Source of the DNA: a virus
Virus record (IMG/VR): IMGVR_UViG_3300006352_000020
Span: 1 to 20,344 of that record
Length of the DNA: 20,344 bases
Direction: 5' to 3' (one strand)
How positions within the stretch are numbered: the stretch's first letter is position 1; each line of letters opens with the position of its first letter. This document shows, piece after piece, positions 1 to 10,495 of the stretch. The notes below the pieces were generated by a model that ran no database searches, was not told the origin of the DNA, and saw only the letters and a list, made by a program, of their open reading frames with translations. The position numbers and the translations under genes are program-made.

Positions 1-252
1 TATTGATCCAGAAACATTCGACATCGCCGTGACATTGGCAGAGGTTCCCAAGACATTCATGTCATTTACAATATCAGAGGTAGCTAAGATATTCATGTCT
101 GCCACAACATCGTTCGTAGCCAGGATAGCCATGTCTGCAACGATGGCGTCCGTAGCCAAGATAGCCATGTCGGCTACAATAGCATCAGTGCCTAAAATCG
201 CCATATCAGCGACAATTGCATCTGTTGCAAGAATCGCCATGTCGGCAAGAAC
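1..252 (-). repeat. Seven tandem 36-nt (12-aa) repeats in the tail fibre
   Basis: Seven in-frame 36-nt units encode a 12-residue motif of the type VADMAILATDAI. The central Met codons fall exactly 36 nt apart (cat at 22, 58, 94, 130, 166, 202 and 238). The copies differ at third codon positions and degenerate toward the window edge (for example NDMNVLGTSANV, TAMSNVSGSI). This implies selection on the protein repeat rather than a recent DNA duplication. The array may continue beyond base 1. Confidence 0.9.
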
Positions 253-1284
253 GGCGGAAGCCGCAAGTGCGTCAATGTTTGCTTGGGCAGAACTGCTAGG
301 CGTAAGGGCGATCCAAGCAGATCCGGTGTAAACTTTCATCAAGTTTGTTGACGAATTAAAAAACAAATCACCAGTGTTTAAGGCGCTGCTAGGATCGGAA
401 GATCCTGTGGAGTATTGGCCGGTAAAACTAGCAAGTGCGGTTTCTGAAGAGTTCTTTGCAGTAACGCTTGCATCCTTTGCAACAACGCTTGCATTTTTGG
501 CAACGACACTTGCATCTTTTGCGGCAATGCTTGCGTCCCGTGCGGTCTCTGCGTTTGTCTCTGCTGTCTCTGCCGCTGTCTCGCTTGCGGCTGCTGCTGT
601 GGCGCTGGTGGTTGCTGCGGATGCATTAACAATTAAATCATACTTTGCAGAGTTAGCATTTGTCGTAAGTGGCTGCGAGCCGCTAGAAGTGTGCGCAGTT
701 TTTACCATAAAGATATTATTAGTGCTTGTGTCCTTAACCAAGTCGCGCACTTCATAAGCGGTAGACGCGGCCCAATTTCCCCGAAACGTACCGATCTCTT
801 GGGTGATGCTAACATTGCCGGAGCTATCAAAAGCAAAGATTTTATTCGCACGATCTGTCGCAGAGATTGTAAATTCAGAGCCAGTAATGACGTTTGTTCG
901 TGAAGCCTTGATTGTTCGACCAAGCTCTTCTTTGTGCTGCTGCACCATGAAGGTCAACTTGTCCAAGCTGTTTTCAAGAGACTGCGCAGGGAATGGATCG
1001 TTAGGAACTAAGTCTAATCCTTGATCCAGGTCCAATTCGCGCAAGATAACAATGGTAACTCCTGACGCCGGTGCAGCCCCAAAAACTACGTTACCGCCGC
1101 TAGCGGCCCCTACACCTGTGACAGTGTAGTTCGTTGTAATCGATTGGACTGTTTCTGTTCCAGCGCTTGATCGAAGGATAACCGTCAGCTCATCTTGGTC
1201 AAAAACCTTAAAGCCGTAAGCGAAAGTCGTAAGCGCGCCGTTGCCGCTGTAACTTGCTCGATTAGTGCTGCTTGATACTGTCAT
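1..1284 (-). CDS. Tail fibre protein, T7 gp17-type N-terminus (3' end beyond window)
   Basis: This gene is open from its ATG (1282-1284) to the window edge, giving 428 codons without a stop; the C-terminal receptor-binding part is missing. AAGGA lies 6 nt before the start. Residues 1 to about 150 have the look of the T7 tail-fibre N-terminal domain that docks on the tail: an N-terminus of the type NRASYSGNGALTTFAYGFKV, then a LTVILRSSAG-type strand and LDLDQGLDLVPNDPF. An Ala-rich segment (about residues 200-283) with seven-residue units such as AKNASVV looks like a trimeric coiled coil. It is followed by a GDLFFNSSTNLMKVYTGSAW motif common in phage fibres, and then by seven 12-residue repeats that run off the window. 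The gene follows the ejection-protein block, as gene 17 does in T7. Family assignment is confident; the receptor is unknown. Confidence 0.9.
   Translation of the reverse strand, partial: MTVSSSTNRASYSGNGALTTFAYGFKVFDQDELTVILRSSAGTETVQSITTNYTVTGVGAASGGNVVFGAAPASGVTIVILRELDLDQGLDLVPNDPFPAQSLENSLDKLTFMVQQHKEELGRTIKASRTNVITGSEFTISATDRANKIFAFDSSGNVSITQEIGTFRGNWAASTAYEVRDLVKDTSTNNIFMVKTAHTSSGSQPLTTNANSAKYDLIVNASAATTSATAAAASETAAETAETNAETARDASIAAKDASVVAKNASVVAKDASVTAKNSSETALASFTGQYSTGSSDPSSALNTGDLFFNSSTNLMKVYTGSAWIALTPSSSAQANIDALAASAVLADMAILATDAIVADMAILGTDAIVADMAILATDAIVADMAILATNDVVADMNILATSDIVNDMNVLGTSANVTAMSNVSGSI
434..632 (-). repeat. Ala-rich heptad-like repeat segment in the tail fibre
   Basis: The fibre frame encodes consecutive seven-residue units AKDASVV, AKNASVV, AKDASVT and AKNSSET. 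They are preceded by an Ala/Thr/Glu-rich stretch (SETAAETAETNAETARDA). The regular Ala spacing and the absence of Pro and Gly fit a long trimeric coiled-coil shaft of the kind found in phage fibres. Confidence 0.75.
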
Positions 1285-1340: not shown

Positions 1341-3824
1341 CTATTCAAATGCTTTCGATATTTCTGGCGCACGGCTAGGTGTAGTATCTCCCGGCCCCCA
1401 CCAATATTTTTGTCCTGTCTGTTTTTTTGTTCTATTTTCCAGCCTGCGAAACTTAGATTTCGCTTTCGGATCAGTCATTAACTGCATTTGATCCCATAAA
1501 CCGCGCTCCAATGCTAGGCGTCCATACCAAAGAGAAGAACCTGGCGTGTGACGTTGTGTGAACTTAACCATTTCACTGGCAGCGTTTGTATCCTGGCCTG
1601 TGGCCGCTTGGTACAGATTGCCAACTGTTAGTTCAAGAAGGTCTTGACCCGCACCGGCAACCGGACCAGCTATTGTTTCGGATAGCCCTGACCCATAGCG
1701 GCTTGTACCAGAAGTTAGAAAATCACCAAAGATACCTAATCCGCCGCCCTGCATAAAGGCTGCAAACCAAAACTTTGCTGTTTCTTCGCTATCGCCAAAC
1801 ATTTCACGCGGATCTCTACCCTTGGAAACCTCTTTCATTTGCATCGCTAGAGCGCCCATGAGAGTTGTAGAAATTAACAGATTTGAATAGTACGCACCTT
1901 TAGAAGATGATTGCGGCAGCTGCATCCCGCGCATCAAGTGCGTATTAACCAGGGTAACGCCAAAGTTTTTATACATTGCAAACGATCGGGCCATTTCGCC
2001 AGTTAGCGTTCCAGGCTGCGTTCCGCCAGTTAGGAATGTAGCGCCACGAACAGATGTTGAGGGAACCGCAAAATTGGTTTCCGTGTTTATCATTTCCAGC
2101 AACCTGGTAGATATGTTTTCGCGCAGATCCTCATCAATATCAGTGCGCGCAGCAATGTCTGTAGGACGTATAAACTTTGCGCCCTTATCGTCATATGGAT
2201 CTGTGCGCCGTATTATGTCCCACTGCGTAGCCTGGATATTGTACCGCTCCATTGTAGAACGAAAGTTAGGGTCGAGCTCGTCAAAGGCTTTGCCAGCATT
2301 GCGGGCTACAGTACCCATAAACTCCATGCCAAATGCCCACCGTCCGGCCGAAGTCATAGGCGACAAGAATGACGCCCTCATAACAAAGTCAGATATTCTG
2401 CGCGTAACCTCTGGTCCCGACATATCCCCGACAAAACGCATTTGACCAGCAGCAAGGCTAGTCCAACCCTCAGCAATCAAGCCGGAGCTAATAGCAAGCT
2501 CGCCTTTTTCCTTGGCCCCTAGCGGGCTTATATATTTTAAATAATCTTTAAGTATGCCAGTTTGGGGCAGTCCAGAGAATTGACGGGCAAGGCGCTGAAA
2601 ATTAACATCTGTTATTGCTGAGATTGCAGCCGCGCCAAGTTGCGCAGACTGCAAGATTTGGCGCGTTCCTGCCATTGTCGATGAAAATTTGCTGTTAATA
2701 GGAGAGTTGTTTCTGCCAGATACAGCCATATACATATCGTCAAGTCGCTTGCCGGTAGAGCGCGCCTTGTCCTTTAGGGCTTCATCCTTTGCCATGTTGG
2801 CTTGCTTGGTCAGACTGTCTTTCATAAAAGTTATAGTTGACGTTGGGTTAGGGCCAAGCACTTCCATCATTGCAATATCGCGGGACATATTAGAAATGTG
2901 AGAAACCATAACATCAAACACGTTATCGTCGCCAAATTCCCTTTGATACTCAAGCCAGCTATCAGCATCCTTAAAAACCAAAAAGCGGTGATCCTGGCGT
3001 TGGTTGGCAAGGCTTTTGCCACGCTGGCCGGAACCAGGCCGCATTTTGTTTGCGCCCTCTGTAGTTATAGTTTCGTAAACATCTCTTAAAGCTAACTCTA
3101 AGCGCTGAGGTGTGAAGGCAAGACCCGTCATTTGGTCTATCATATCATTAGGAGAAAGCTTAGGAAGAATGCTGCTTCTCCAACCCTCATAGTCAGCTTT
3201 GCTTATTTTTAAGCTTTGATGATTTTGAGGCAAGAACCACTTTTCATTTTTAGGAATAGATCCACCGGCACGATTAAACTTTTTGCGAAGTGTCTCTGCG
3301 GTCTTAGTCCATGCAGCCGCCATCTCTTTCGCGCTGACATCTCCCGTATTTTCGCCAAAGATCTCGCGCGTCATGTTTTTAAGCTGCGCTTTTTGCCGAA
3401 CCTCCCCAACTAGGTTGCGCCGAAACGTACCAAGAACCTTGTTCATCTCAGCAAAAGCCATGCCTTTTACGGCGTCTTCCCTTTGAGTAACGCTAGAAAA
3501 ACGAGACATCCCATCTTGTTCAAGATGCGCAATTGCTGCGGCAAAAGGATTGCTGCGTCCCAGAGGGTCTTTGTATTGGTTCATATTAAAGCTAACTTGC
3601 TGCCAAGCCTTAGCTGTTAAAAGCTTTTTCCGTTTGCGCTCAAAGGCTTGCCGCTCAAGAGCGTCAAAGGTATCACGCGCAGCTTGGCTAGAAGCCGGTC
3701 CAGATCCCATCTTTCCCTGGTACTGCTCTTCAAGCTCATCAAGAAGATCCCGCGCTTCCTTCGCCTGGGCTTCTGTGATGGTTCCCTCGGCCTGGGCGTT
3801 AATAATACATTCCCTAAAGCTCAT
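1341..3824 (-). CDS. Large internal virion / DNA-ejection protein (827 aa)
   Basis: The best start is the ATG at 3822-3824. It overlaps the upstream stop as ATGA and has AGAGGG about 8 nt upstream. A GTG three codons earlier (3833) would lengthen the overlap to 13 nt and is less likely. The N-terminus (MSFRECIINAQAEGTITEAQ) and the C-terminus (SLWYGRLALERGLWDQMQ, later WWGPGDTTPSRAPE) match patterns I recall from large virion proteins next to tail-fibre genes in podoviruses. The mid and C-terminal parts hold several Gly/Ala/Phe-rich hydrophobic stretches, such as AKFWFAAFMQGGGLGIFG, that could contact membrane. No enzymatic motif was seen. By position, between the 1093-aa protein and the fibre, it is a member of the ejected core. 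Its role in membrane passage is inferred. Confidence 0.75.
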   Translation of the reverse strand: MSFRECIINAQAEGTITEAQAKEARDLLDELEEQYQGKMGSGPASSQAARDTFDALERQAFERKRKKLLTAKAWQQVSFNMNQYKDPLGRSNPFAAAIAHLEQDGMSRFSSVTQREDAVKGMAFAEMNKVLGTFRRNLVGEVRQKAQLKNMTREIFGENTGDVSAKEMAAAWTKTAETLRKKFNRAGGSIPKNEKWFLPQNHQSLKISKADYEGWRSSILPKLSPNDMIDQMTGLAFTPQRLELALRDVYETITTEGANKMRPGSGQRGKSLANQRQDHRFLVFKDADSWLEYQREFGDDNVFDVMVSHISNMSRDIAMMEVLGPNPTSTITFMKDSLTKQANMAKDEALKDKARSTGKRLDDMYMAVSGRNNSPINSKFSSTMAGTRQILQSAQLGAAAISAITDVNFQRLARQFSGLPQTGILKDYLKYISPLGAKEKGELAISSGLIAEGWTSLAAGQMRFVGDMSGPEVTRRISDFVMRASFLSPMTSAGRWAFGMEFMGTVARNAGKAFDELDPNFRSTMERYNIQATQWDIIRRTDPYDDKGAKFIRPTDIAARTDIDEDLRENISTRLLEMINTETNFAVPSTSVRGATFLTGGTQPGTLTGEMARSFAMYKNFGVTLVNTHLMRGMQLPQSSSKGAYYSNLLISTTLMGALAMQMKEVSKGRDPREMFGDSEETAKFWFAAFMQGGGLGIFGDFLTSGTSRYGSGLSETIAGPVAGAGQDLLELTVGNLYQAATGQDTNAASEMVKFTQRHTPGSSLWYGRLALERGLWDQMQLMTDPKAKSKFRRLENRTKKQTGQKYWWGPGDTTPSRAPEISKAFE

Positions 3825-6800
3825 TTTGCGCACCCTCTTAAACGATCCAGCATTTTAACATCCTGGTCAAATTCATCCTTCATGTCTCGCAATGTTTGGA
3901 ATTGCGGCACGATTTCGTTTGTCTTCTCATCCAGGCGGCTACCGATCGGGATCTCCGTATCTTCTCGGAAGTTGACTTGTAGCTCTTCTAGCAGTATATC
4001 GGTGTCGGAGGTATCAACATTGAGATTTTTTCTAGTAGATGGGTCTATACCCACAGTCGAAACAGAGCCAGGCGCAATGGTGTCTCTTGCAAGTGACGGG
4101 TCTTGGAAGCCTATTTCCTCTGCCGCAATACTTTCGGATACCCGCTCACCAGAGGTTACGCGAGAAATGGTAGCGTCACTGACAACCAGGCTCGGCTGGT
4201 CTATGCCCGATGGCAGCTGACGGTTTATAAGTGCTGACCAACTTTCAGAAAGATTGCCTGCAACCTCCCCATACAGATTTTTCATATCCTCAACCGCTTT
4301 GGCTCTAGCTGCATCGGGTTGATTTAAATCACGCGATATTTTGTAAAGCTCAGTGCCGCCGCTTTGCTTTGCTTCCAACATACCAGGAGGCCAGATCTGG
4401 ACCTCTCCAATTTGTCCATCATCGAATACAACGGAAAGCTTGCGGTCAAAATAGCCTTCACTTGTAAAAGCATATCCTTCATCAATAACCTTGTATCGCT
4501 TGGATAAAGCAGCAATGAATTGCTCCGTAGCTTCGTTTGTTTCAGCACTAATCCCACCACGCGCGACATCTGTAATTCGGTTCAGATCACCAGAGTATTT
4601 ATCTCGCAGTTTTTCCTCGACACGTTCACGCTTTTTGAGTTTTGCTGGTTTCTGTTTTGCCCCAGCCAACTCAGCAGCCCTGGAAATCTCAGAAGTTAAT
4701 TCCGCGTGGTTGCGCTCTGCGCGTACCATAATTTCATCAACATCAATAAAATTTTGCTCTGTTTTAACTTGGCTTTCAAGAACCTTGCTTTCGATAGGGT
4801 CCATATCTTGAAGCCGAACAATGCGATCTTCTGGCATAACAGCGGGTTTGCCGATCTTTGCCTTAGCTGCATCATTGGCAATCACGCTGCCCAGGACATC
4901 GCCCTCTAACTGGCTGGCCTGGTCCAGAGAACCTTGACCAAACGCATCATCAAATGCGTCTAGCTGGCCTTCCTCTGCGCTAGTTCGTATTGACGCGATT
5001 TCATCTGGAGCATTGAAAGTGCGTCCAGCATCGCCAATTTCTGCGCGGTCGAACTCGCCTGCTGAAATTGCTCGTCGGACATCTTCGATAAAGCTAGTTG
5101 TAGCGGCGTTGTAGCTTCCGGTTTCTTTTGCGTTTCTTGCTGCTTCGGTAAGGGCGTCTGAGAGAGCGCCTTTCCTGTTCGCTTGACTTTGGAGGAGCGC
5201 GACCGCTTTGCCATCTTCTTGAGCCCTTTTCTGATTTGCATCTCTAGCTAATAAGTTACCTTCATCTTCAAGCCTAGTAGCGTTCTTGATGAGGTTTTGA
5301 AATGAAGATTTATCTTTGCGCAGCTGTTTTTGAGCTCGGTCTAAAACCTTTGCTCGCTCCATAAAAAGGCTAGTCGTAAGCACTTCTTCGCCAAACAGGT
5401 TTTCTTGCGTTTCAGACACCATGCTAGTTTCTCTTACCTGACGCACAATCGATTCTGCCTGGAATGCGTTAGCCGGTTCTGTTTTCGCCAAAACATTTAA
5501 GGCTGCTTTCTGCAAGTTTTCATCACCAGGGATTAACCGACCAACAATAGCCGCAAAGTTTGGAGCAACAACCTCGTTTTTAACCATTCCCCAAGCTTCA
5601 CCGACCAGGTTTGCAAGATCAGTTGCCTGGCGAACAAATGCCGATCGTGGCGGTAACTCGCCAATGCGCTGTGGGCTAGTTCGCAAGACCTTTGCAGCGT
5701 CAATCGCGCTACCCGTCCCCTCAGATATATTCTTTAGAGCGGCTGTGACCATAGCATCTTCTGGCGTAATCCCGTCAACTTCGCGCAAACGATAGCCAAT
5801 CATTTTGACGTTCTGTGACGGATCTTGCTGAGAGATCCGCTTGGCAAGGCCTAGCCTCTGGTGGCCGTCAGCAATGAATAAGCGACTATCCGCATACTCA
5901 TAGATAGTAACCATGCCACCCTTAATAGGATCCCACTGGGTTACACCCTGGAGCCGGTCAGTCACCCCAAACTGGTCGCCACCTTCTTTAAACTGAAACG
6001 TCTTAGCATCCACGCCAATATCGTTAGGATCAAACTCGTCAACAATACCTCTAATGTTTGTTGCTCGGTTTACGTTATCCGGCAACTCTACCGGAGAGGC
6101 AGGGATCTCAGAAACCTTGGGAAGCTTACCATTGGTAAACGCAATATCCGCTTCGGTAAGACGCGCGTTGTGCTCTATATCAGCGTCCTGGGTTCTGACC
6201 AGGGGGGTACTTTCTGCGGCTGAGGTGTAAACTTCCTCTAATACTTCGGCGTTTGCCTGCATTGGGGATTTTCGTCCCGCTGCCTGACTGAGAACTTTAG
6301 CGCCTTGCCTTGCCTGGCTTGCTGTAAGCTTAACTGTATCCGCGCCAATTTTAATGGCTATTGGAAATGCGCCACCAATTAACGCCGCCTGTCCAACATT
6401 ATTGCGAAAATCTTCCCAGCCATATTTTAGGCCTAGACTTTTGTACCATGCAGCTACACCAGGTTGCTGTATTGCTTCGGTGGTAGCATTTACAGCCGCT
6501 TCGTAAAAAACCATACCAAGCAAACTTTTTCCAGTTTTTACCCAACCAGCAGGCAGGGCCATAGCAGACTGATTTATTGGGTCAGTTGCACCAAATCCCA
6601 TACCGCCAACAAACCTGGCAGTTACATTCCCCAAGCCTGGAGATCTAGCAGTAAGCTCCGCTAATTCACTTTGTTCAACAAAGTATTTGTCTCTCGCGGC
6701 TGCAACCCAAACTTTATCCCGCTCTGGATCAAGAACAGACACAACAAGCTCTGGCGGTAATGCCTCACGGTTTTCCCGAACATAGCTTTCAACCTGCTGT

Positions 6801-7102
6801 GCTTCATAATCGTATCGTTTTTTACCGTAACTACGCATAGCCTCGCCAGAAAGAATGGAAAGAACATTCGGGTTTAGATACGAGCCTGGATTTTTAAAAG
6901 ACTTGCCAGTGATAATTTCAATTTCATCAACGATAGGCTCCCAGGTGTCTTCTACATACAATTCAGCAGCAGATCCGCTTTGCATCCTGGCAGCATCAAA
7001 CGATTTCTTTACGTTTTCGATAAACCCACCTTCGGGTTTATTGCGTCGAGGAACCGTTGCAAAAGAAGTTGGGTTTATTTCATCTCTGAGGTAACTACTC
7101 AT
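3821..7102 (-). CDS. Multidomain internal virion / polyvalent ejection protein with ParB-like and RelA/SpoT-like domains (1093 aa)
   Basis: The ATG at 7100-7102 shares its A with the upstream TAA. The N-terminal 300 residues look structural, with hydrophobic Gly/Ala stretches near residues 160-205 and 236-257. Residues about 363-455 resemble a ParB/sulfiredoxin-fold domain, with the signature ADGHQRLGLAKRI at 411-423. A charged, helical linker spans about 570-830. Residues about 832-925 resemble a RelA/SpoT nucleotidyltransferase: ITDVARGGI (D845), EGYFDRK (G883, Y884), GEVQI (E900) and GMLEAKQSGGTELYK. The C-terminus (QTLRDMKDEFDQDVKMLDRL, then RGCAK) is of a type I recall from phage polyvalent proteins. 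It holds the place of T7 gene 16, but no lysozyme/transglycosylase motif was found. The virion location is inferred from context and the enzyme activity from motifs only. Confidence 0.8.
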   Translation of the reverse strand: MSSYLRDEINPTSFATVPRRNKPEGGFIENVKKSFDAARMQSGSAAELYVEDTWEPIVDEIEIITGKSFKNPGSYLNPNVLSILSGEAMRSYGKKRYDYEAQQVESYVRENREALPPELVVSVLDPERDKVWVAAARDKYFVEQSELAELTARSPGLGNVTARFVGGMGFGATDPINQSAMALPAGWVKTGKSLLGMVFYEAAVNATTEAIQQPGVAAWYKSLGLKYGWEDFRNNVGQAALIGGAFPIAIKIGADTVKLTASQARQGAKVLSQAAGRKSPMQANAEVLEEVYTSAAESTPLVRTQDADIEHNARLTEADIAFTNGKLPKVSEIPASPVELPDNVNRATNIRGIVDEFDPNDIGVDAKTFQFKEGGDQFGVTDRLQGVTQWDPIKGGMVTIYEYADSRLFIADGHQRLGLAKRISQQDPSQNVKMIGYRLREVDGITPEDAMVTAALKNISEGTGSAIDAAKVLRTSPQRIGELPPRSAFVRQATDLANLVGEAWGMVKNEVVAPNFAAIVGRLIPGDENLQKAALNVLAKTEPANAFQAESIVRQVRETSMVSETQENLFGEEVLTTSLFMERAKVLDRAQKQLRKDKSSFQNLIKNATRLEDEGNLLARDANQKRAQEDGKAVALLQSQANRKGALSDALTEAARNAKETGSYNAATTSFIEDVRRAISAGEFDRAEIGDAGRTFNAPDEIASIRTSAEEGQLDAFDDAFGQGSLDQASQLEGDVLGSVIANDAAKAKIGKPAVMPEDRIVRLQDMDPIESKVLESQVKTEQNFIDVDEIMVRAERNHAELTSEISRAAELAGAKQKPAKLKKRERVEEKLRDKYSGDLNRITDVARGGISAETNEATEQFIAALSKRYKVIDEGYAFTSEGYFDRKLSVVFDDGQIGEVQIWPPGMLEAKQSGGTELYKISRDLNQPDAARAKAVEDMKNLYGEVAGNLSESWSALINRQLPSGIDQPSLVVSDATISRVTSGERVSESIAAEEIGFQDPSLARDTIAPGSVSTVGIDPSTRKNLNVDTSDTDILLEELQVNFREDTEIPIGSRLDEKTNEIVPQFQTLRDMKDEFDQDVKMLDRLRGCAK

Positions 7103-9528
7103 TACTGGTCCCTCAACCTAACCGCTTCTCTCCTGACTAAAACTTTGCGGCCTGAAATTCTTTTATTTTGCGCGTTGCTTTCAATAAAATCATCCACAGC
7201 TTGCTTGTCATTCAGATCTATGCCGCTGTTATTTAAGTCGTTAGCTAGATCCCCTATCAAAACTTGATCCCCTTTAGTCGCTAGAAAACCGCTGTACTTT
7301 TTAGAGGATGCACTTTTACGCGAAGATCGCACTAAATCTTCCATAGTAAATGTTATATCAATGTCTGCATTGTCAGTTAGCATCCCATATTTACTATCGC
7401 CATACTCTCCGTCAAAAATCCCATAAACCATTTGCCCGTTTCTCTTGCCGAGCACTTGGATACTATATTTTTCGGCTTGAAAGAAGGCAAAAACCTTTTG
7501 ATTAATTACGCCATCCGCTGCTATGTCATTAAAGTCTTCATAAGATATAGAGTTTATAGCCTCATTGATTTCATCTGCTGTGCGGTTTGCTGGTAAAAGC
7601 GTGGGCTTGCCGGACACTTCTTGAACACCGCCAGTGCCTGTTTGAGAGTTGAAGCCAGAAGCTACTTGAACGGCCTGGGACCAGAGGCCTTCATCAAATT
7701 CTTTGTTAACTTTACGAGAAATAACTTCTGCATAATAGGCTTCGGCAGTATCGCTAATATTCTTTTTTAGCTCTGCATTAACACCACCAGGCAGGTTTTC
7801 AAACGCCGTTCCTATAATGCTAAACATTTCTTCTTTGATTTCAGCCTTATCTGCCCCTACAAAAGGGGAACCATTCTCCTCAATTTCAGAGATACCATTT
7901 AGAATAATCTCAGCCTGGTTTAGCAAACCATCCTGCATAAGCCCTGCAACATGCGCAGTAACTGGAGAGTTCGGCGCAATCTGGGCCATAACCGCATTAG
8001 AGTAATCTCCAAACAGCTGCGTAATGTCGTTGATTGCCTGCATCTTCTCTAAAGCCGTGCCGGTATTCAATCTTGGGGCATACGCCAAAGCTTCGGTCGG
8101 GCTTAGAATTGTAAGAGGACCAGATAAATTATAATGGCCTTGAACCTGTATTGCTGCCAAGATCCTTTGCTGGGCTCCAGTTTGATCCTCTCCTGTCTCC
8201 TGGGTTCTCTGAATTGCATCCGCTGTTAAGTTTACCGCCGCAACCTTTACAGCGCCTGTTTTAGAAGCAAAGCCAATAGGGTCGTTTTTCAGCTGCTTAT
8301 CCATGTTTGCACGGAAACCGCGCAGAAAGTCTAAGCCTAGAAGCTCCCTAGCTTGGAGCCCTGGGCCATCCATTGTGTCGCCCGTCTCAAGACCCATTAT
8401 CATACCATCAAGATCTTGAAGGTTTGAAACCTTTTTCACTGAGGAAGAAAGATCCTGTATGTACTGAAGATCTCCCAAGCCCTCTTGCAACTCGACTGCC
8501 TCTATATTGTCGATAAATTGAGAAACTCCAGTAACCAATACTTCTAGATCTGCAACTCCATTGCCAGGCAAAGTGCCGCCATCTTGAAGTATTTGTGTAT
8601 AAGATGTAATCTGTTCGCCGGTTTTTGTTGCAACCTGCTTATTAACACGGCGCTGTTTTTCCTCTTCCGCAGAAGCCGCGTCTATAAATCCAGCGCCAGT
8701 GCCAAGAGATCGCAGGATCTGGGCCTGATTTTGCAGGGGAAGCTTTTTTAGAAGAGCAAGTTGAAGTTGGTTCTTGCCTGCTAAGTTTGGATCATTGTCC
8801 CTAATAGCCAGGCGGATGTTTTCAAGATCCCGGCTTGGGGTGTCGCTGCTTTGTATCGCTTGCATTAGGTTGCTTGTTACAGCACCTGTAATAACCGCAA
8901 ACTCTTGCTTTTTTAATGCCTCTGGATTGCCCAGGCCAAGCTGACCCATACGAATACTATCAACGCCAAAGTTGGAAGCAATAAGATTAAACTCATCAAC
9001 CGATGTTACATTAGCAAGGTTTTGCATTGTTGTATTAGCCCTGACCGCGCGGGCGGCTGTGTTGGCACTTTCAATCTTTTGGTCAATCGTGTTGCGCAAG
9101 GAAAACCGTTGCGTTAATTCCATCTGATTGAAACGATCGGTCAGAATACGCCGAGACTCTAAGTCATTTACATCTTCAAGAAGCTTTTCGCGCGTGGCCT
9201 TGCTTGCCTGGGACCAGAGGCCTTCCTCTTCCTTACCGCCCTCATTGAAAATATTGCGAAGTTTGCCGGTTTGGATCTTTGATAGGTTTAAAGCCTCTTC
9301 TCTTAACGTCTCTTCGCCAGCAAGCAGTTTTTCATTAACCTGCGTTTCACGCGCAGCCTTGTAACGCATTGCCGTAAACTCAGCTGCCTGGCCTATTACA
9401 GCGCCAGATATGACGCTCTGGGCCTGCGCCTGCTGCACAAAGGGCTGCGCATTTGCCCTGGCTCGAAAGCTACGACCAGGAGCTTCGGATGTCATTTGCG
9501 ATCCGGCTGTGTATGTCGGTATTCTCAT
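7102..9528 (-). CDS. Internal virion protein, T7 gp15-like by position (808 aa)
   Basis: The ATG at 9526-9528 overlaps the previous stop as ATGA. The protein is long and mostly helical in appearance (rich in Ala, Gln, Glu, Leu and Asn), with no signal peptide, no clear membrane segment and no recognised catalytic motif. The N-terminal region (AQPFVQQAQAQSVISGAVIGQAAEF and onward, about residues 28-55) is Gln/Ala-rich, as in many core proteins. The peptide EGLWSQA occurs twice, near residues 101-107 and 612-618, and is encoded by the same 20 bases both times. Its size, and its place between the 180-aa and 1093-aa proteins, match T7 gp15, the tube-forming ejection protein (about 750 aa). The homology itself is inferred from order and composition, not from a clear motif. 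Confidence 0.75.
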   Translation of the reverse strand: MRIPTYTAGSQMTSEAPGRSFRARANAQPFVQQAQAQSVISGAVIGQAAEFTAMRYKAARETQVNEKLLAGEETLREEALNLSKIQTGKLRNIFNEGGKEEEGLWSQASKATREKLLEDVNDLESRRILTDRFNQMELTQRFSLRNTIDQKIESANTAARAVRANTTMQNLANVTSVDEFNLIASNFGVDSIRMGQLGLGNPEALKKQEFAVITGAVTSNLMQAIQSSDTPSRDLENIRLAIRDNDPNLAGKNQLQLALLKKLPLQNQAQILRSLGTGAGFIDAASAEEEKQRRVNKQVATKTGEQITSYTQILQDGGTLPGNGVADLEVLVTGVSQFIDNIEAVELQEGLGDLQYIQDLSSSVKKVSNLQDLDGMIMGLETGDTMDGPGLQARELLGLDFLRGFRANMDKQLKNDPIGFASKTGAVKVAAVNLTADAIQRTQETGEDQTGAQQRILAAIQVQGHYNLSGPLTILSPTEALAYAPRLNTGTALEKMQAINDITQLFGDYSNAVMAQIAPNSPVTAHVAGLMQDGLLNQAEIILNGISEIEENGSPFVGADKAEIKEEMFSIIGTAFENLPGGVNAELKKNISDTAEAYYAEVISRKVNKEFDEGLWSQAVQVASGFNSQTGTGGVQEVSGKPTLLPANRTADEINEAINSISYEDFNDIAADGVINQKVFAFFQAEKYSIQVLGKRNGQMVYGIFDGEYGDSKYGMLTDNADIDITFTMEDLVRSSRKSASSKKYSGFLATKGDQVLIGDLANDLNNSGIDLNDKQAVDDFIESNAQNKRISGRKVLVRREAVRLRDQ
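7673..7692. repeat. 20-bp direct repeat, copy 1 (within the 808-aa gene)
   Basis: The 20 bases gcctgggaccagaggccttc are identical to 9206-9225. They encode GLWSQ in the same frame and contain the near-palindromes ctgg-ga-ccag and ggcct...aggcc. Confidence 0.85.
9206..9225. repeat. 20-bp direct repeat, copy 2 (within the 808-aa gene)
   Basis: This is identical to 7673-7692, in the same gene and reading frame, about 1.5 kb away. Confidence 0.85.
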
Positions 9529-10067
9529 GTCGTTGTACCTCCAAACATACCGCTGTTGTAACCAAGTTGCGCCGCTTGCCCGAAGCTTGAGATTAAACTT
9601 GCTGTGCCTTGTGCGCGCGTTGCTGCTGCGCCAGCGCCAGCCTCCATGCGAGACATCTGAGCAGTAAGCTTGGCGTCTTCTTGAGCATCGTTAATCTGCA
9701 TGTTGGTGACGTAGTTGTTAAACTTATCAATCGTTATCTCATACTCAATCTCTCTGGCGTTCTCCCGCAAAACTGCCATTGGAGTACCTACGGCAATGTC
9801 GATCCCAGCGTAAGCATAGTTAGCAACAACCTCGCCCTGCACATCGCGGAATTGCTTCCTCTTGCGCGTGTTGGAGATAAGCGTGTTATTGTTTATAATA
9901 GTACGCTGGTTTTCCAGAAGGTTTACATCACGCTCAATGATCTGTGCGTTAAACTCACCTATGCGCTGTTGTGCGGCGGCAGCTCTAGCGGCGGCAGAGT
10001 CACGGTTGACCCCGCCGAGCAAGGATAGTCCAGCTTGGCCGATTGCCATTAATGTCATAGGCTCCAT
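9525..10067 (-). CDS. Internal virion protein, T7 gp14-like (180 aa)
   Basis: The ATG at 10065-10067 has AAAGG 8 nt upstream and lies 13 nt inside the end of the GNAT-like gene. The N-terminus (MTLMAIGQAGLSLLGG) is a short hydrophobic Gly/Ala segment, followed by an Ala-rich helix. A charged helical middle, about residues 40-130, includes RDVQGEVVANYAYAGIDIAV and GTPMAVLRENAREIEYE. The C-terminus is Gly/Ala-rich and ends GMFGGTTT. This layout, the size (T7 gp14 is about 196 aa) and the position directly before the gp15-like gene support the ejection protein that forms a pore in the outer membrane. The pore role is known for T7 and inferred here. Confidence 0.8.
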   Translation of the reverse strand: MEPMTLMAIGQAGLSLLGGVNRDSAAARAAAAQQRIGEFNAQIIERDVNLLENQRTIINNNTLISNTRKRKQFRDVQGEVVANYAYAGIDIAVGTPMAVLRENAREIEYEITIDKFNNYVTNMQINDAQEDAKLTAQMSRMEAGAGAAATRAQGTASLISSFGQAAQLGYNSGMFGGTTT

Positions 10068-10495
10068 TTGGCGTACCTTTCATAGTCAAGCCCGTCAGGC
10101 CCGTACTTTTTCATCAAGCCTTCGCTTTCAAAGCCCAAGAACTTTGCAAGCTTGTGCGCCCCCGCAAAGTCAGAGCGAACCGCAGCTTGAACCCTGCGTA
10201 ACTTTAAGCGCTGTATGGCCGCATCAAGCTCACGCCGAACTAAGCGTATTGTCTGGATCTTTTTTTTCTGCATGTCTTTTGTCGGAATAAACCAAGCTTC
10301 AGCCACACCGTCCCACATTGGCGCTAATCCTGTTACGGCGTAGACATTGCCCTCACCCAGAAAAGCCAGACCGCGACCAGGAGCCGCGAACATATGAAGG
10401 CTAGAAAGCACCAAGCCAATGTTGGTGTCATTCTCTTTGGGGGCGTTCTTAGCTACATGCAAAATATGGGCCCTGGTAAGTGTTGCTGCTATCAT
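10055..10495 (-). CDS. GNAT-like protein in the T7 gene 13 position (146 aa)
   Basis: The ATG at 10493-10495 overlaps the tubular protein B stop as ATGA. The fold resembles a GNAT N-acetyltransferase: a central strand pair (VYAVTGLAPMWDGVAEAWFI, residues 51-70), the helix KIQTIRLVRRELDAAIQRL (79-97), and a C-terminal block like GNAT motif B, with AGAHKLAKFLGF (111-122), EGLMKKYGPDG and a final YERYAKW. The acetyl-CoA pyrophosphate loop (Q/RxxGxG/A) is not evident, so it may be non-catalytic. T7 gp13 (138 aa), required for virion assembly, sits in the same place between gp12 and gp14, so this is probably its counterpart. An active acetyltransferase is possible but unsupported. Confidence 0.75.
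   Translation of the reverse strand: MIAATLTRAHILHVAKNAPKENDTNIGLVLSSLHMFAAPGRGLAFLGEGNVYAVTGLAPMWDGVAEAWFIPTKDMQKKKIQTIRLVRRELDAAIQRLKLRRVQAAVRSDFAGAHKLAKFLGFESEGLMKKYGPDGLDYERYAKWSL

What the first reader, a model, noticed from the sequence alone, without database searches (positions are those of the whole stretch)
4328..4609. RelA/SpoT-like nucleotidyltransferase domain inside a probable ejected virion protein
Residues about 832-925 of the 1093-aa protein match the RelA/SpoT synthetase pattern in order. They show a basic start (KKRERVEEKLRDKYSGD), ITDVARGGI with D845 (metal-ligand Asp position), GY at 883-884 (guanine-stacking Tyr position), GEVQI with E900 (catalytic Glu position) and GMLEAKQSGGTELYK at the end. 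In the known family these fit (p)ppGpp synthesis or, in ToxSAS toxins, tRNA pyrophosphorylation. The place in the T7 gene 16 slot suggests the enzyme is packaged and delivered at DNA entry. It could alter host translation or the stringent response before any phage gene is expressed. I know of no characterised phage that does this from an ejection protein.
Basis: partly seen in the sequence, partly recalled or inferred. Interest (0 to 1): 0.78.

Follow-up and report, generated by a model that had tools for sequence, protein, structure and literature searches.

The report
Alarmone-synthetase domain in phage ejection protein
A short-tailed bacterial virus carries, inside a protein that is probably packed in the virus head and pushed into the host ahead of the DNA, an intact-looking alarmone-synthetase enzyme most like a bacterial growth-arrest toxin, in a slot where relatives carry other toxin-like enzymes or none.

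Summary
Residues 786-948 of the 1093-aa protein (window 3821-7102, minus strand) form a RelA/SpoT-type synthetase (RSH) domain. A single-sequence search of PDB sequences finds Tas1/Apk1, a (p)ppApp-making secreted toxin, at E=1.4e-6; a 19-sequence profile gives 8.5e-20 and no other RSH chain. The AlphaFold model (pLDDT 91.6) matches Tas1 at Z 15.4. D845 and E900 are kept in 52 of 52 distinct relatives, Y884 in 51. dN/dS is about 0.03-0.07.

The gene module is epsilon15-like: gp13-, gp14- and gp15-slot genes, then this protein in the gp16 slot, then a homologue of epsilon15 core protein gp17. Orthologues carry peptidoglycan-cutting domains, which fits an ejected protein. The RSH domain sits in an exchangeable cassette (about residues 736-1046). 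In relatives the slot holds zeta-toxin kinase, other RSH subtypes, GNAT, PBECR nuclease, ART, or nothing. At least 13 changes are needed on the neighbour-gene tree. No immunity gene adjoins it.

RSH domains in injected phage "polyvalent" and MuF proteins were already predicted (Iyer 2017) or shown (Apk2). This is therefore a new variant of a known kind. Packaging, delivery and product, (p)ppApp most likely, are inferred, not shown.

The parts
3821..7102 (-). P0001, 1093-aa probable ejection protein carrying the RSH domain
   Evidence: ORF; overlaps the 808-aa gene upstream at 7102 and the P0002 gene downstream; N-terminal profile A3 matches shorter proteins of Vibrio phages K225 (404 aa, 7e-23) and ZCVPP1 (615 aa, 9e-32)
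4259..4747 (-). RelA/SpoT-type (Tas1/Apk1-like) synthetase domain, residues about 786-948
4328..4609 (-). Catalytic core as reported: D845, R848, Y884, E900, Q902 (K823 lies just outside)
   Evidence: conservation in 51-52 of 52 distinct domains; mapping to Apk1 R330/E382/Q384
3965..4897 (-). Exchangeable cassette (residues about 736-1046) between the middle domain and the C-terminal tail
   Evidence: boundaries from L022 (none) against L052 (RSH), L021 (zeta) and L048 (none)
5114..6016 (-). Conserved middle domain, residues about 363-663, with a ParB-like FIADGHQRLGLA motif; phrog_10691
   Evidence: PHROG E=1.7e-65; motif invariant in A5; no Pfam or PDB sequence match, so ParB is by motif only
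6065..7102 (-). N-terminal helical region, residues 1-346, shared by nearly all relatives whatever the cassette
   Evidence: A3; model helical but only pLDDT 63.7; matches minimal forms
3824..3964 (-). Conserved C-terminal tail, residues 1047-1093, ending ..MLDRLRGCAK, kept with or without a cassette
1341..3833 (-). P0002, homologue of epsilon15 gp17 / phiV10 p20 core protein (start GTG 3833 or, more likely, ATG 3824 with an ATGA overlap)
   Evidence: phrog_684 1.4e-187; profile A4 against epsilon15 gp17 2.6e-111 and phiV10 p20 4.5e-177; sequence at the junction
7102..9528 (-). 808-aa protein in the gp15 slot
   Evidence: position only; no family match of note
9525..10067 (-). gp14-like internal virion protein
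   Evidence: phrog_418 2e-7; Pfam T7_gp14 0.0036, below cut-off
10055..10495 (-). gp13-like internal virion protein
   Evidence: phrog_4177 8e-23, phrog_308 1.3e-9

Best explanation
The domain is a catalytically intact RSH-type pyrophosphokinase of the Tas1/Apk1 branch. It is carried as one of several exchangeable effector cassettes in an ejection protein of epsilon15-like podoviruses of Alphaproteobacteria. The protein is made late, packed in the head with the other core proteins, and expelled into the envelope and cytoplasm before or with the DNA. There the domain uses host ATP to pyrophosphorylate a nucleotide, most likely ATP/ADP to (p)ppApp. A few molecules per virion could drain or rewire the purine pool of a small cell and slow host growth, defence or rival elements before phage genes are expressed. 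Shown here: homology, predicted fold, conserved catalytic residues, purifying selection, gene context, cassette exchange. Inferred: packaging, delivery, activity, product, benefit.
For: Sequence and profile match to Tas1 only. Model pLDDT 91.6, Foldseek 1.8e-8, VIA Z 15.4 Tas1 and 15.2 SaEAS. D845/E900 52 of 52, Y884/R848/K823/Q902 51 of 52; these map to Apk1 R330, E382, Q384 (PMC12691689). dN/dS 0.03-0.07 against L003-L008. Module order identical to epsilon15/phiV10 and P0002 homologous to epsilon15 gp17, a core protein (PMC5850374). Orthologues with SLT (7.9e-20), tail lysozyme or GH108 in the same gene. Cassettes exchanged among close relatives: zeta toxin 8.5e-20, GNAT, PBECR3 6.6e-18, ART-PolyVal 5.6e-17. 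Prophage-type loci in Sphingomonas, Methylobacterium and Bradyrhizobium. Secreted synthetases of this group turn over about 1e5 per minute, so few copies could matter.
Against: No virion proteomics or enzymology. P0001 has no detectable sequence homology to epsilon15 gp16 or T7 gp16, only position. The middle domain is ParB-like by motif only. Acceptor specificity is not readable: SaEAS, structurally as close, makes both (p)ppApp and (p)ppGpp; Apk1 K353 and N370 positions are R869 and K888 here. No adjacent immunity gene, unlike Apk1/Apk2, leaves self-poisoning late in infection unexplained. ATP drain at entry could hurt the phage.
Confidence: 0.55

Rival explanations
1. Same delivered synthetase, but the product is (p)ppGpp (or both alarmones): the phage triggers a stringent-like state at entry rather than adenine-nucleotide poisoning.
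For: RelP and RelQ structures are nearly as close as Tas1 (Z 14.4 and 14.2), and SaEAS, Z 15.2, makes both products. The L074/L136 subtypes pass Pfam RelA_SpoT.
Against: The sequence profile finds Tas1 alone among solved RSH chains.
Confidence: 0.17
2. Delivered toxSAS-like enzyme that pyrophosphorylates the tRNA CCA end and stops translation, as FaRel2 or CapRel.
For: Same superfamily; CapRel Z 11.7, FaRel2 7.3.
Against: The most distant of the RSH matches by structure, and not found by sequence; no antitoxin partner.
Confidence: 0.08
3. The domain is active in the producing (infected or lysogenic) cell rather than the next host, for instance as a late shut-off or superinfection-exclusion factor.
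For: It is synthesised there; some relatives have integrases, and one RSH-bearing phage contig encodes an HD_4 alarmone-hydrolase-like gene that could protect.
Against: It is embedded in a structural gene tightly coupled to core-protein genes; relatives place muralytic, entry-type domains in the same protein.
Confidence: 0.1
4. The RSH fold is retained for a structural or nucleotide-binding role in the ejectosome, without catalysis.
For: L050 has lost the Tyr and Gln; some phages lack any cassette and evidently do without (L022, L048, SI2).
Against: 51 of 52 domains keep every catalytic residue across about 25% identity, under strong purifying selection; the slot is shared with unrelated enzymes.
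Confidence: 0.1

Closest known systems
Tas1/Apk1 (Pseudomonas type VI secretion (p)ppApp synthetase, PDB 6ox6)
   Same: closest by sequence, profile and fold; ATP-site Arg, Glu, Gln, metal Asp and acceptor Tyr aligned
   Different: delivered by T6SS with an adjacent immunity gene Tis1; here in a phage ejection protein with no adjacent immunity gene; about 25% identity
MuF-Apk2 polymorphic toxins of temperate phages (PMC12226406, PMC5576092)
   Same: phage structural protein fused to a (p)ppApp-type synthetase, proposed head loading and injection, exchangeable toxin ends
   Different: MuF head protein with adjacent IapK/Aph1 immunity genes; here epsilon15-gp16-slot protein, internal cassette, no immunity gene adjacent
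Phage polyvalent proteins (Iyer et al. 2017, PMC5512222)
   Same: predicted injected multidomain proteins mixing RelA/SpoT, DdrB-ParB, PBECR, ART, LPD, lysozyme and zeta-toxin kinases; the same domain set occurs in orthologues here
   Different: RelA/SpoT was reported there for spirochaete and epsilonproteobacterial (pro)phages and MuF fusions; here alphaproteobacterial and marine podoviruses, one defined slot, with with/without pairs
Exported alarmone synthetase SaEAS (PDB 8vx3, PMC12691689)
   Same: RSH fold, Z 15.2; secreted enzyme lacking an immunity gene; toxic when cytoplasmic
   Different: Sec-exported bacterial enzyme; 16% identity
Epsilon15/phiV10 internal core proteins gp13-gp17
   Same: gene order; P0002 homologous to gp17
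   Different: epsilon15 gp16 (634 aa) and phiV10 p19 (600 aa) have no RSH or ParB-like domain and no detectable homology to P0001

Membership tests
RelA/SpoT homologue (RSH) synthetase domain | significant sequence/profile similarity to a characterised RSH synthetase | tested here: met
   Tas1 1.4e-6 single sequence, 8.5e-20 profile
RelA/SpoT homologue (RSH) synthetase domain | synthetase fold | tested here: met
   pLDDT 91.6; Foldseek and VIA-align top matches all RSH
RelA/SpoT homologue (RSH) synthetase domain | catalytic Asp, Glu, acceptor-stacking Tyr and basic donor-site residues | tested here: met
   D845, E900, Y884, R848, K823, Q902 in 51-52 of 52.
RelA/SpoT homologue (RSH) synthetase domain | Pfam PF04607 detection | tested here: inconclusive
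   window sequence not detected; 6 of 26 members of A2 detected and L074, L136 over cut-off; a limit of detection rather than a defining trait
RelA/SpoT homologue (RSH) synthetase domain | pyrophosphokinase activity | not testable with these tools
   needs assay
Apk1/Apk2 (p)ppApp toxin systems | closest to Apk1 by sequence | tested here: met
   only RSH chain found by the profile in PDB
Apk1/Apk2 (p)ppApp toxin systems | adenine-nucleotide acceptor specificity | not testable with these tools
   Apk1 K353/N370 positions are R869/K888 here; not diagnostic
Apk1/Apk2 (p)ppApp toxin systems | adjacent immunity gene | tested here: not met
   neighbouring genes overlap on both sides; HD_4 hydrolase family over cut-off in only 1 of 16 RSH-bearing contigs. 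Hence not filed as an Apk1/Apk2 toxin-immunity system, only as working like one
Apk1/Apk2 (p)ppApp toxin systems | PAAR or MuF delivery domain | tested here: not met
   no such Pfam match in P0001
toxSAS toxin-antitoxin module | adjacent antitoxin | tested here: not met
   no gene between P0001 and its overlapping neighbours
Phage polyvalent protein | several disparate enzymatic domains in one late structural-context protein | tested here: met
   RSH plus phrog_10691 middle domain in the window; PBECR3, ART-PolyVal, LPD3, zeta, GNAT, SLT in orthologues
Phage polyvalent protein | DdrB-type ParB domain | tested here: inconclusive
   ParB-like motif only
Podoviral ejection protein (epsilon15 gp16 slot) | position between gp15-slot and gp17-type core genes | tested here: met
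Podoviral ejection protein (epsilon15 gp16 slot) | sequence homology to a known ejection protein | tested here: inconclusive
   N-terminus matches uncharacterised proteins of the same slot in Vibrio phages, not epsilon15 gp16 or any PDB chain
Podoviral ejection protein (epsilon15 gp16 slot) | packaged and ejected | not testable with these tools
   needs virion proteomics

The most novel reading that the evidence does not exclude
A virion-borne polymorphic effector system: epsilon15-like podoviruses of Alphaproteobacteria (including SAR11-like hosts) inject, from one exchangeable ejection-protein slot and without a linked immunity gene, alternative enzymes ((p)ppApp synthetase, zeta kinase, ART, PBECR nuclease, acetyltransferase) that reset host nucleotide or cell-wall metabolism before any phage gene is expressed.
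Probability: 0.4. Interest if true: 0.78.

Novelty: new variant of a known kind. Interest (0 to 1): 0.58.

Why it matters
If true, a phage alters host alarmone or ATP pools with enzyme molecules it carries, before transcription begins. That would make the prediction of injected alarmone enzymes in polyvalent proteins directly testable in a small, well-ordered podoviral module. The natural with/without pairs (L052 against L022) and swaps (RSH against zeta) show the slot tolerates deletion and exchange. This makes it a clean genetic system for asking what such virion cargo is for.

Tried and rejected
Pfam PF04607 on the window contig and protein gave nothing; resolved by profile and fold. PADLOC gave no RSH defence match. 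tblastn of the RSH domain against 50,697 isolate phages found none, so no isolate was found to study directly. N-terminus and P0002 profiles against PDB gave no T7 gp16. The N-terminal model was too weak (pLDDT 63.7) to search. ParB assignment of the middle domain not confirmed. A test for a T7-type RNA polymerase with PF00940 rang in no control, so says nothing. I considered and rejected a chance motif match (E-values), a frameshift or annotation artefact (orthologues of 80-99% identity with the same ORF), and a host gene in the contig (head, portal, terminase and tail genes all around).

Full report
OBSERVATION. The window is a 20,344-base virus record. Its convincing genes run on the minus strand in the order terminase, portal, scaffold/protease-like, major head protein, two tail tubular proteins, gp13-like, gp14-like, an 808-aa protein, P0001 (1093 aa), P0002 (830 aa), tail fibre. 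P0001 holds the reported motifs at the reported residues: D845, G883-Y884, E900. The domain as a whole spans about residues 786-948.

IT IS AN RSH SYNTHETASE DOMAIN. A single-sequence search of all PDB chain sequences finds Tas1 (6ox6) at 1.4e-6 with nothing else below 0.2. A profile of 19 phage relatives finds Tas1 at 8.5e-20 and no other RSH chain. AlphaFold2 on residues 781-976 with 26 phage sequences gives pLDDT 91.6 and pTM 0.85. Foldseek ranks Tas1 first (1.8e-8), and all matches listed with E<=1e-3 are RSH enzymes. VIA-align gives Z 15.4 to Tas1 (162 residues, 3.2 A, 25% identity), 15.2 to the exported synthetase SaEAS, 14.4 to RelP, 11.7 to CapRel and 7.3 to FaRel2. Pfam PF04607 misses the window sequence but accepts RSH cassettes in the same gene of other phages.

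CATALYTIC RESIDUES. Among 52 distinct phage domains, D845 and E900 are kept in 52, and K823, R848, Y884 and Q902 in 51. The one exception among the three named residues, L050, has W for Y884; the single Q902 departure (Y) also fits its sequence. Counting along the phmmer alignment to 6ox6, R848, E900 and Q902 fall on Apk1 R330, E382 and Q384, named as ATP-site residues in PMC12691689 (the paper prints Q382). The offset of 21 between chain index and paper numbering is mine. Against relatives of 82-90% identity the domain has dN/dS 0.03-0.07. Its dS (1.5-3.1) exceeds that of the flanks (0.3-1.0), which suggests that cassettes recombine between lineages.

THE CARRIER. P0002 is homologous to epsilon15 gp17 (2.6e-111) and phiV10 p20 (4.5e-177). 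Epsilon15 gp17 is described as forming the internal core of ejection proteins (PMC5850374). The upstream order gp13, gp14, gp15-slot, gp16-slot matches epsilon15 and phiV10. P0001 therefore sits in the epsilon15 gp16 slot. I could not detect sequence homology to epsilon15 gp16 or to T7 gp16. The N-terminal profile does match shorter proteins in Vibrio phages K225 (404 aa, in the same slot) and ZCVPP1 (615 aa). Orthologues of P0001 carry a lytic transglycosylase (L046, L139), a tail lysozyme (L065-L067) or a GH108 domain (L137). Such domains in a podoviral core gene point to an entry role, as the ejection-protein review describes for T7 gp16 and K1E gp35 (PMC8954989).

THE CASSETTE. In about 70 relatives found through P0002, the segment between the conserved middle domain and a conserved C-terminal tail is exchanged. 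It may be RSH (several subtypes), zeta-toxin kinase (8.5e-20 and 4.5e-23), GNAT, or absent. In bacterial contigs it includes PBECR3 (6.6e-18), ART-PolyVal (5.6e-17) and LPD3. L052 (RSH) and L022 (none) are sisters on the P0002 tree and differ by a clean in-frame absence. Zeta carriers L020, L021 and L028 are sisters of the window clade, and RSH carrier L079 lies among zeta carriers. The labels need 13 changes, RSH at least five on starred branches (a quick tree with some long branches). Some proteins have a further domain before the RSH (L042, L097, L102).

NO LINKED IMMUNITY. P0001 overlaps its neighbours on both sides; the downstream ATG overlaps its stop as ATGA. An alarmone-hydrolase family (HD_4) was found over its cut-off in one of 16 RSH-bearing contigs, many of them fragments. 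This differs from Apk1 and Apk2, whose immunity genes are adjacent.

HOSTS AND LIFESTYLE. Relatives of P0002 in bacterial assemblies are mostly in Alphaproteobacteria (Sphingomonas, Novosphingobium, Roseomonas, Methylobacterium, Bradyrhizobium, a Pelagibacter MAG). RSH cassettes occur in Methylobacterium, Bradyrhizobium and Pelagibacter contigs. No integrase was found in the contigs nearest the window (L005, L011, L012), while some relatives have one. The window's own host is not known.

MECHANISM. Best reading: late synthesis, packaging, ejection, then pyrophosphate transfer from host ATP, most likely to ATP/ADP. Reported turnover for this group is about 1e5 per minute (SaEAS, comparable to Apk1). 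With an ATP pool of about 3e5-9e5 molecules in a half-femtolitre cell (my estimate from general knowledge), a handful of enzymes could consume an equivalent amount within minutes. That makes low-copy delivery plausible but not shown. Why a phage would do this is open: host arrest, blocking of defence, or rival exclusion.

NOVELTY. Iyer 2017 predicted injected polyvalent proteins with RelA/SpoT domains and proposed alarmone-like shut-down of the host, reporting acquisition in spirochaete and epsilonproteobacterial (pro)phages and MuF fusions. It also reported zeta-like kinases in polyvalent and MuF proteins. MuF-Apk2 enzymes have been assayed. BFVD holds uncultured-phage proteins annotated RelA/SpoT, DdrB-like or ART-PolyVal that match the model. 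New here, as far as these searches show: the ejection-protein slot of epsilon15-like podoviruses, the Tas1-type assignment, and swapping and absence mapped at one locus. My library searches found no report of it, but most subscription papers are not held.

Noticed in passing
L042, L034 (ORF residues about 735-935), L097 (residues about 755-890), L102 (residues about 745-910): A further domain lies between the middle domain and the RSH domain; in L102 and L097 it looks ADP-ribosyltransferase-like by eye (VYRVGEV.., SRTEGYAD..), so some proteins may carry two effectors. No convincing Pfam match for that part.
   Followed up: partly
L152 1360-1881 (minus strand), same contig as L033: A 173-aa HD_4 hydrolase like small alarmone hydrolases lies in a phage contig that also encodes an RSH cassette, next to a resolvase-like gene; possible protection, not adjacent to the ejection gene.
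   Followed up: partly
L050 ORF residues 854-971: A divergent RSH-like cassette that lost the acceptor Tyr (W) and, by its sequence, the Gln of ExQ; possibly changed or lost activity.
   Followed up: no
L130 4624-12315 (Prochlorococcus phage P-SCSP1d): A 2563-aa protein in the gp16 position of a cultured Autographiviridae phage carries the same middle domain plus, by eye, zincin-like and ART-like regions; a culturable test case for polyvalent cargo.
   Followed up: partly
L109, L105, L110, L125, L126: Related RSH domains also occur in a 558-aa protein and in giant (1800-3100 aa) phage proteins of other architectures, some with MPTase-, ART- or ParB-like parts by eye.
   Followed up: no
window 3965-4897: Synonymous divergence in the RSH region (dS 1.5-3.1) is well above the flanking regions (0.3-1.0) against the same relatives, suggesting recombination of the cassette.
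   Followed up: partly
window 1-300 (minus strand tail fibre gene): The tail fibre protein ends in repeated VADMAILATDAI-type units at the contig edge.
   Followed up: no
L128 5802-16942 (Ruegeria phage 45A6): A roughly 3900-aa hypothetical protein of an isolated roseophage holds the same middle domain at 49% identity; its other domains were not examined.
   Followed up: no
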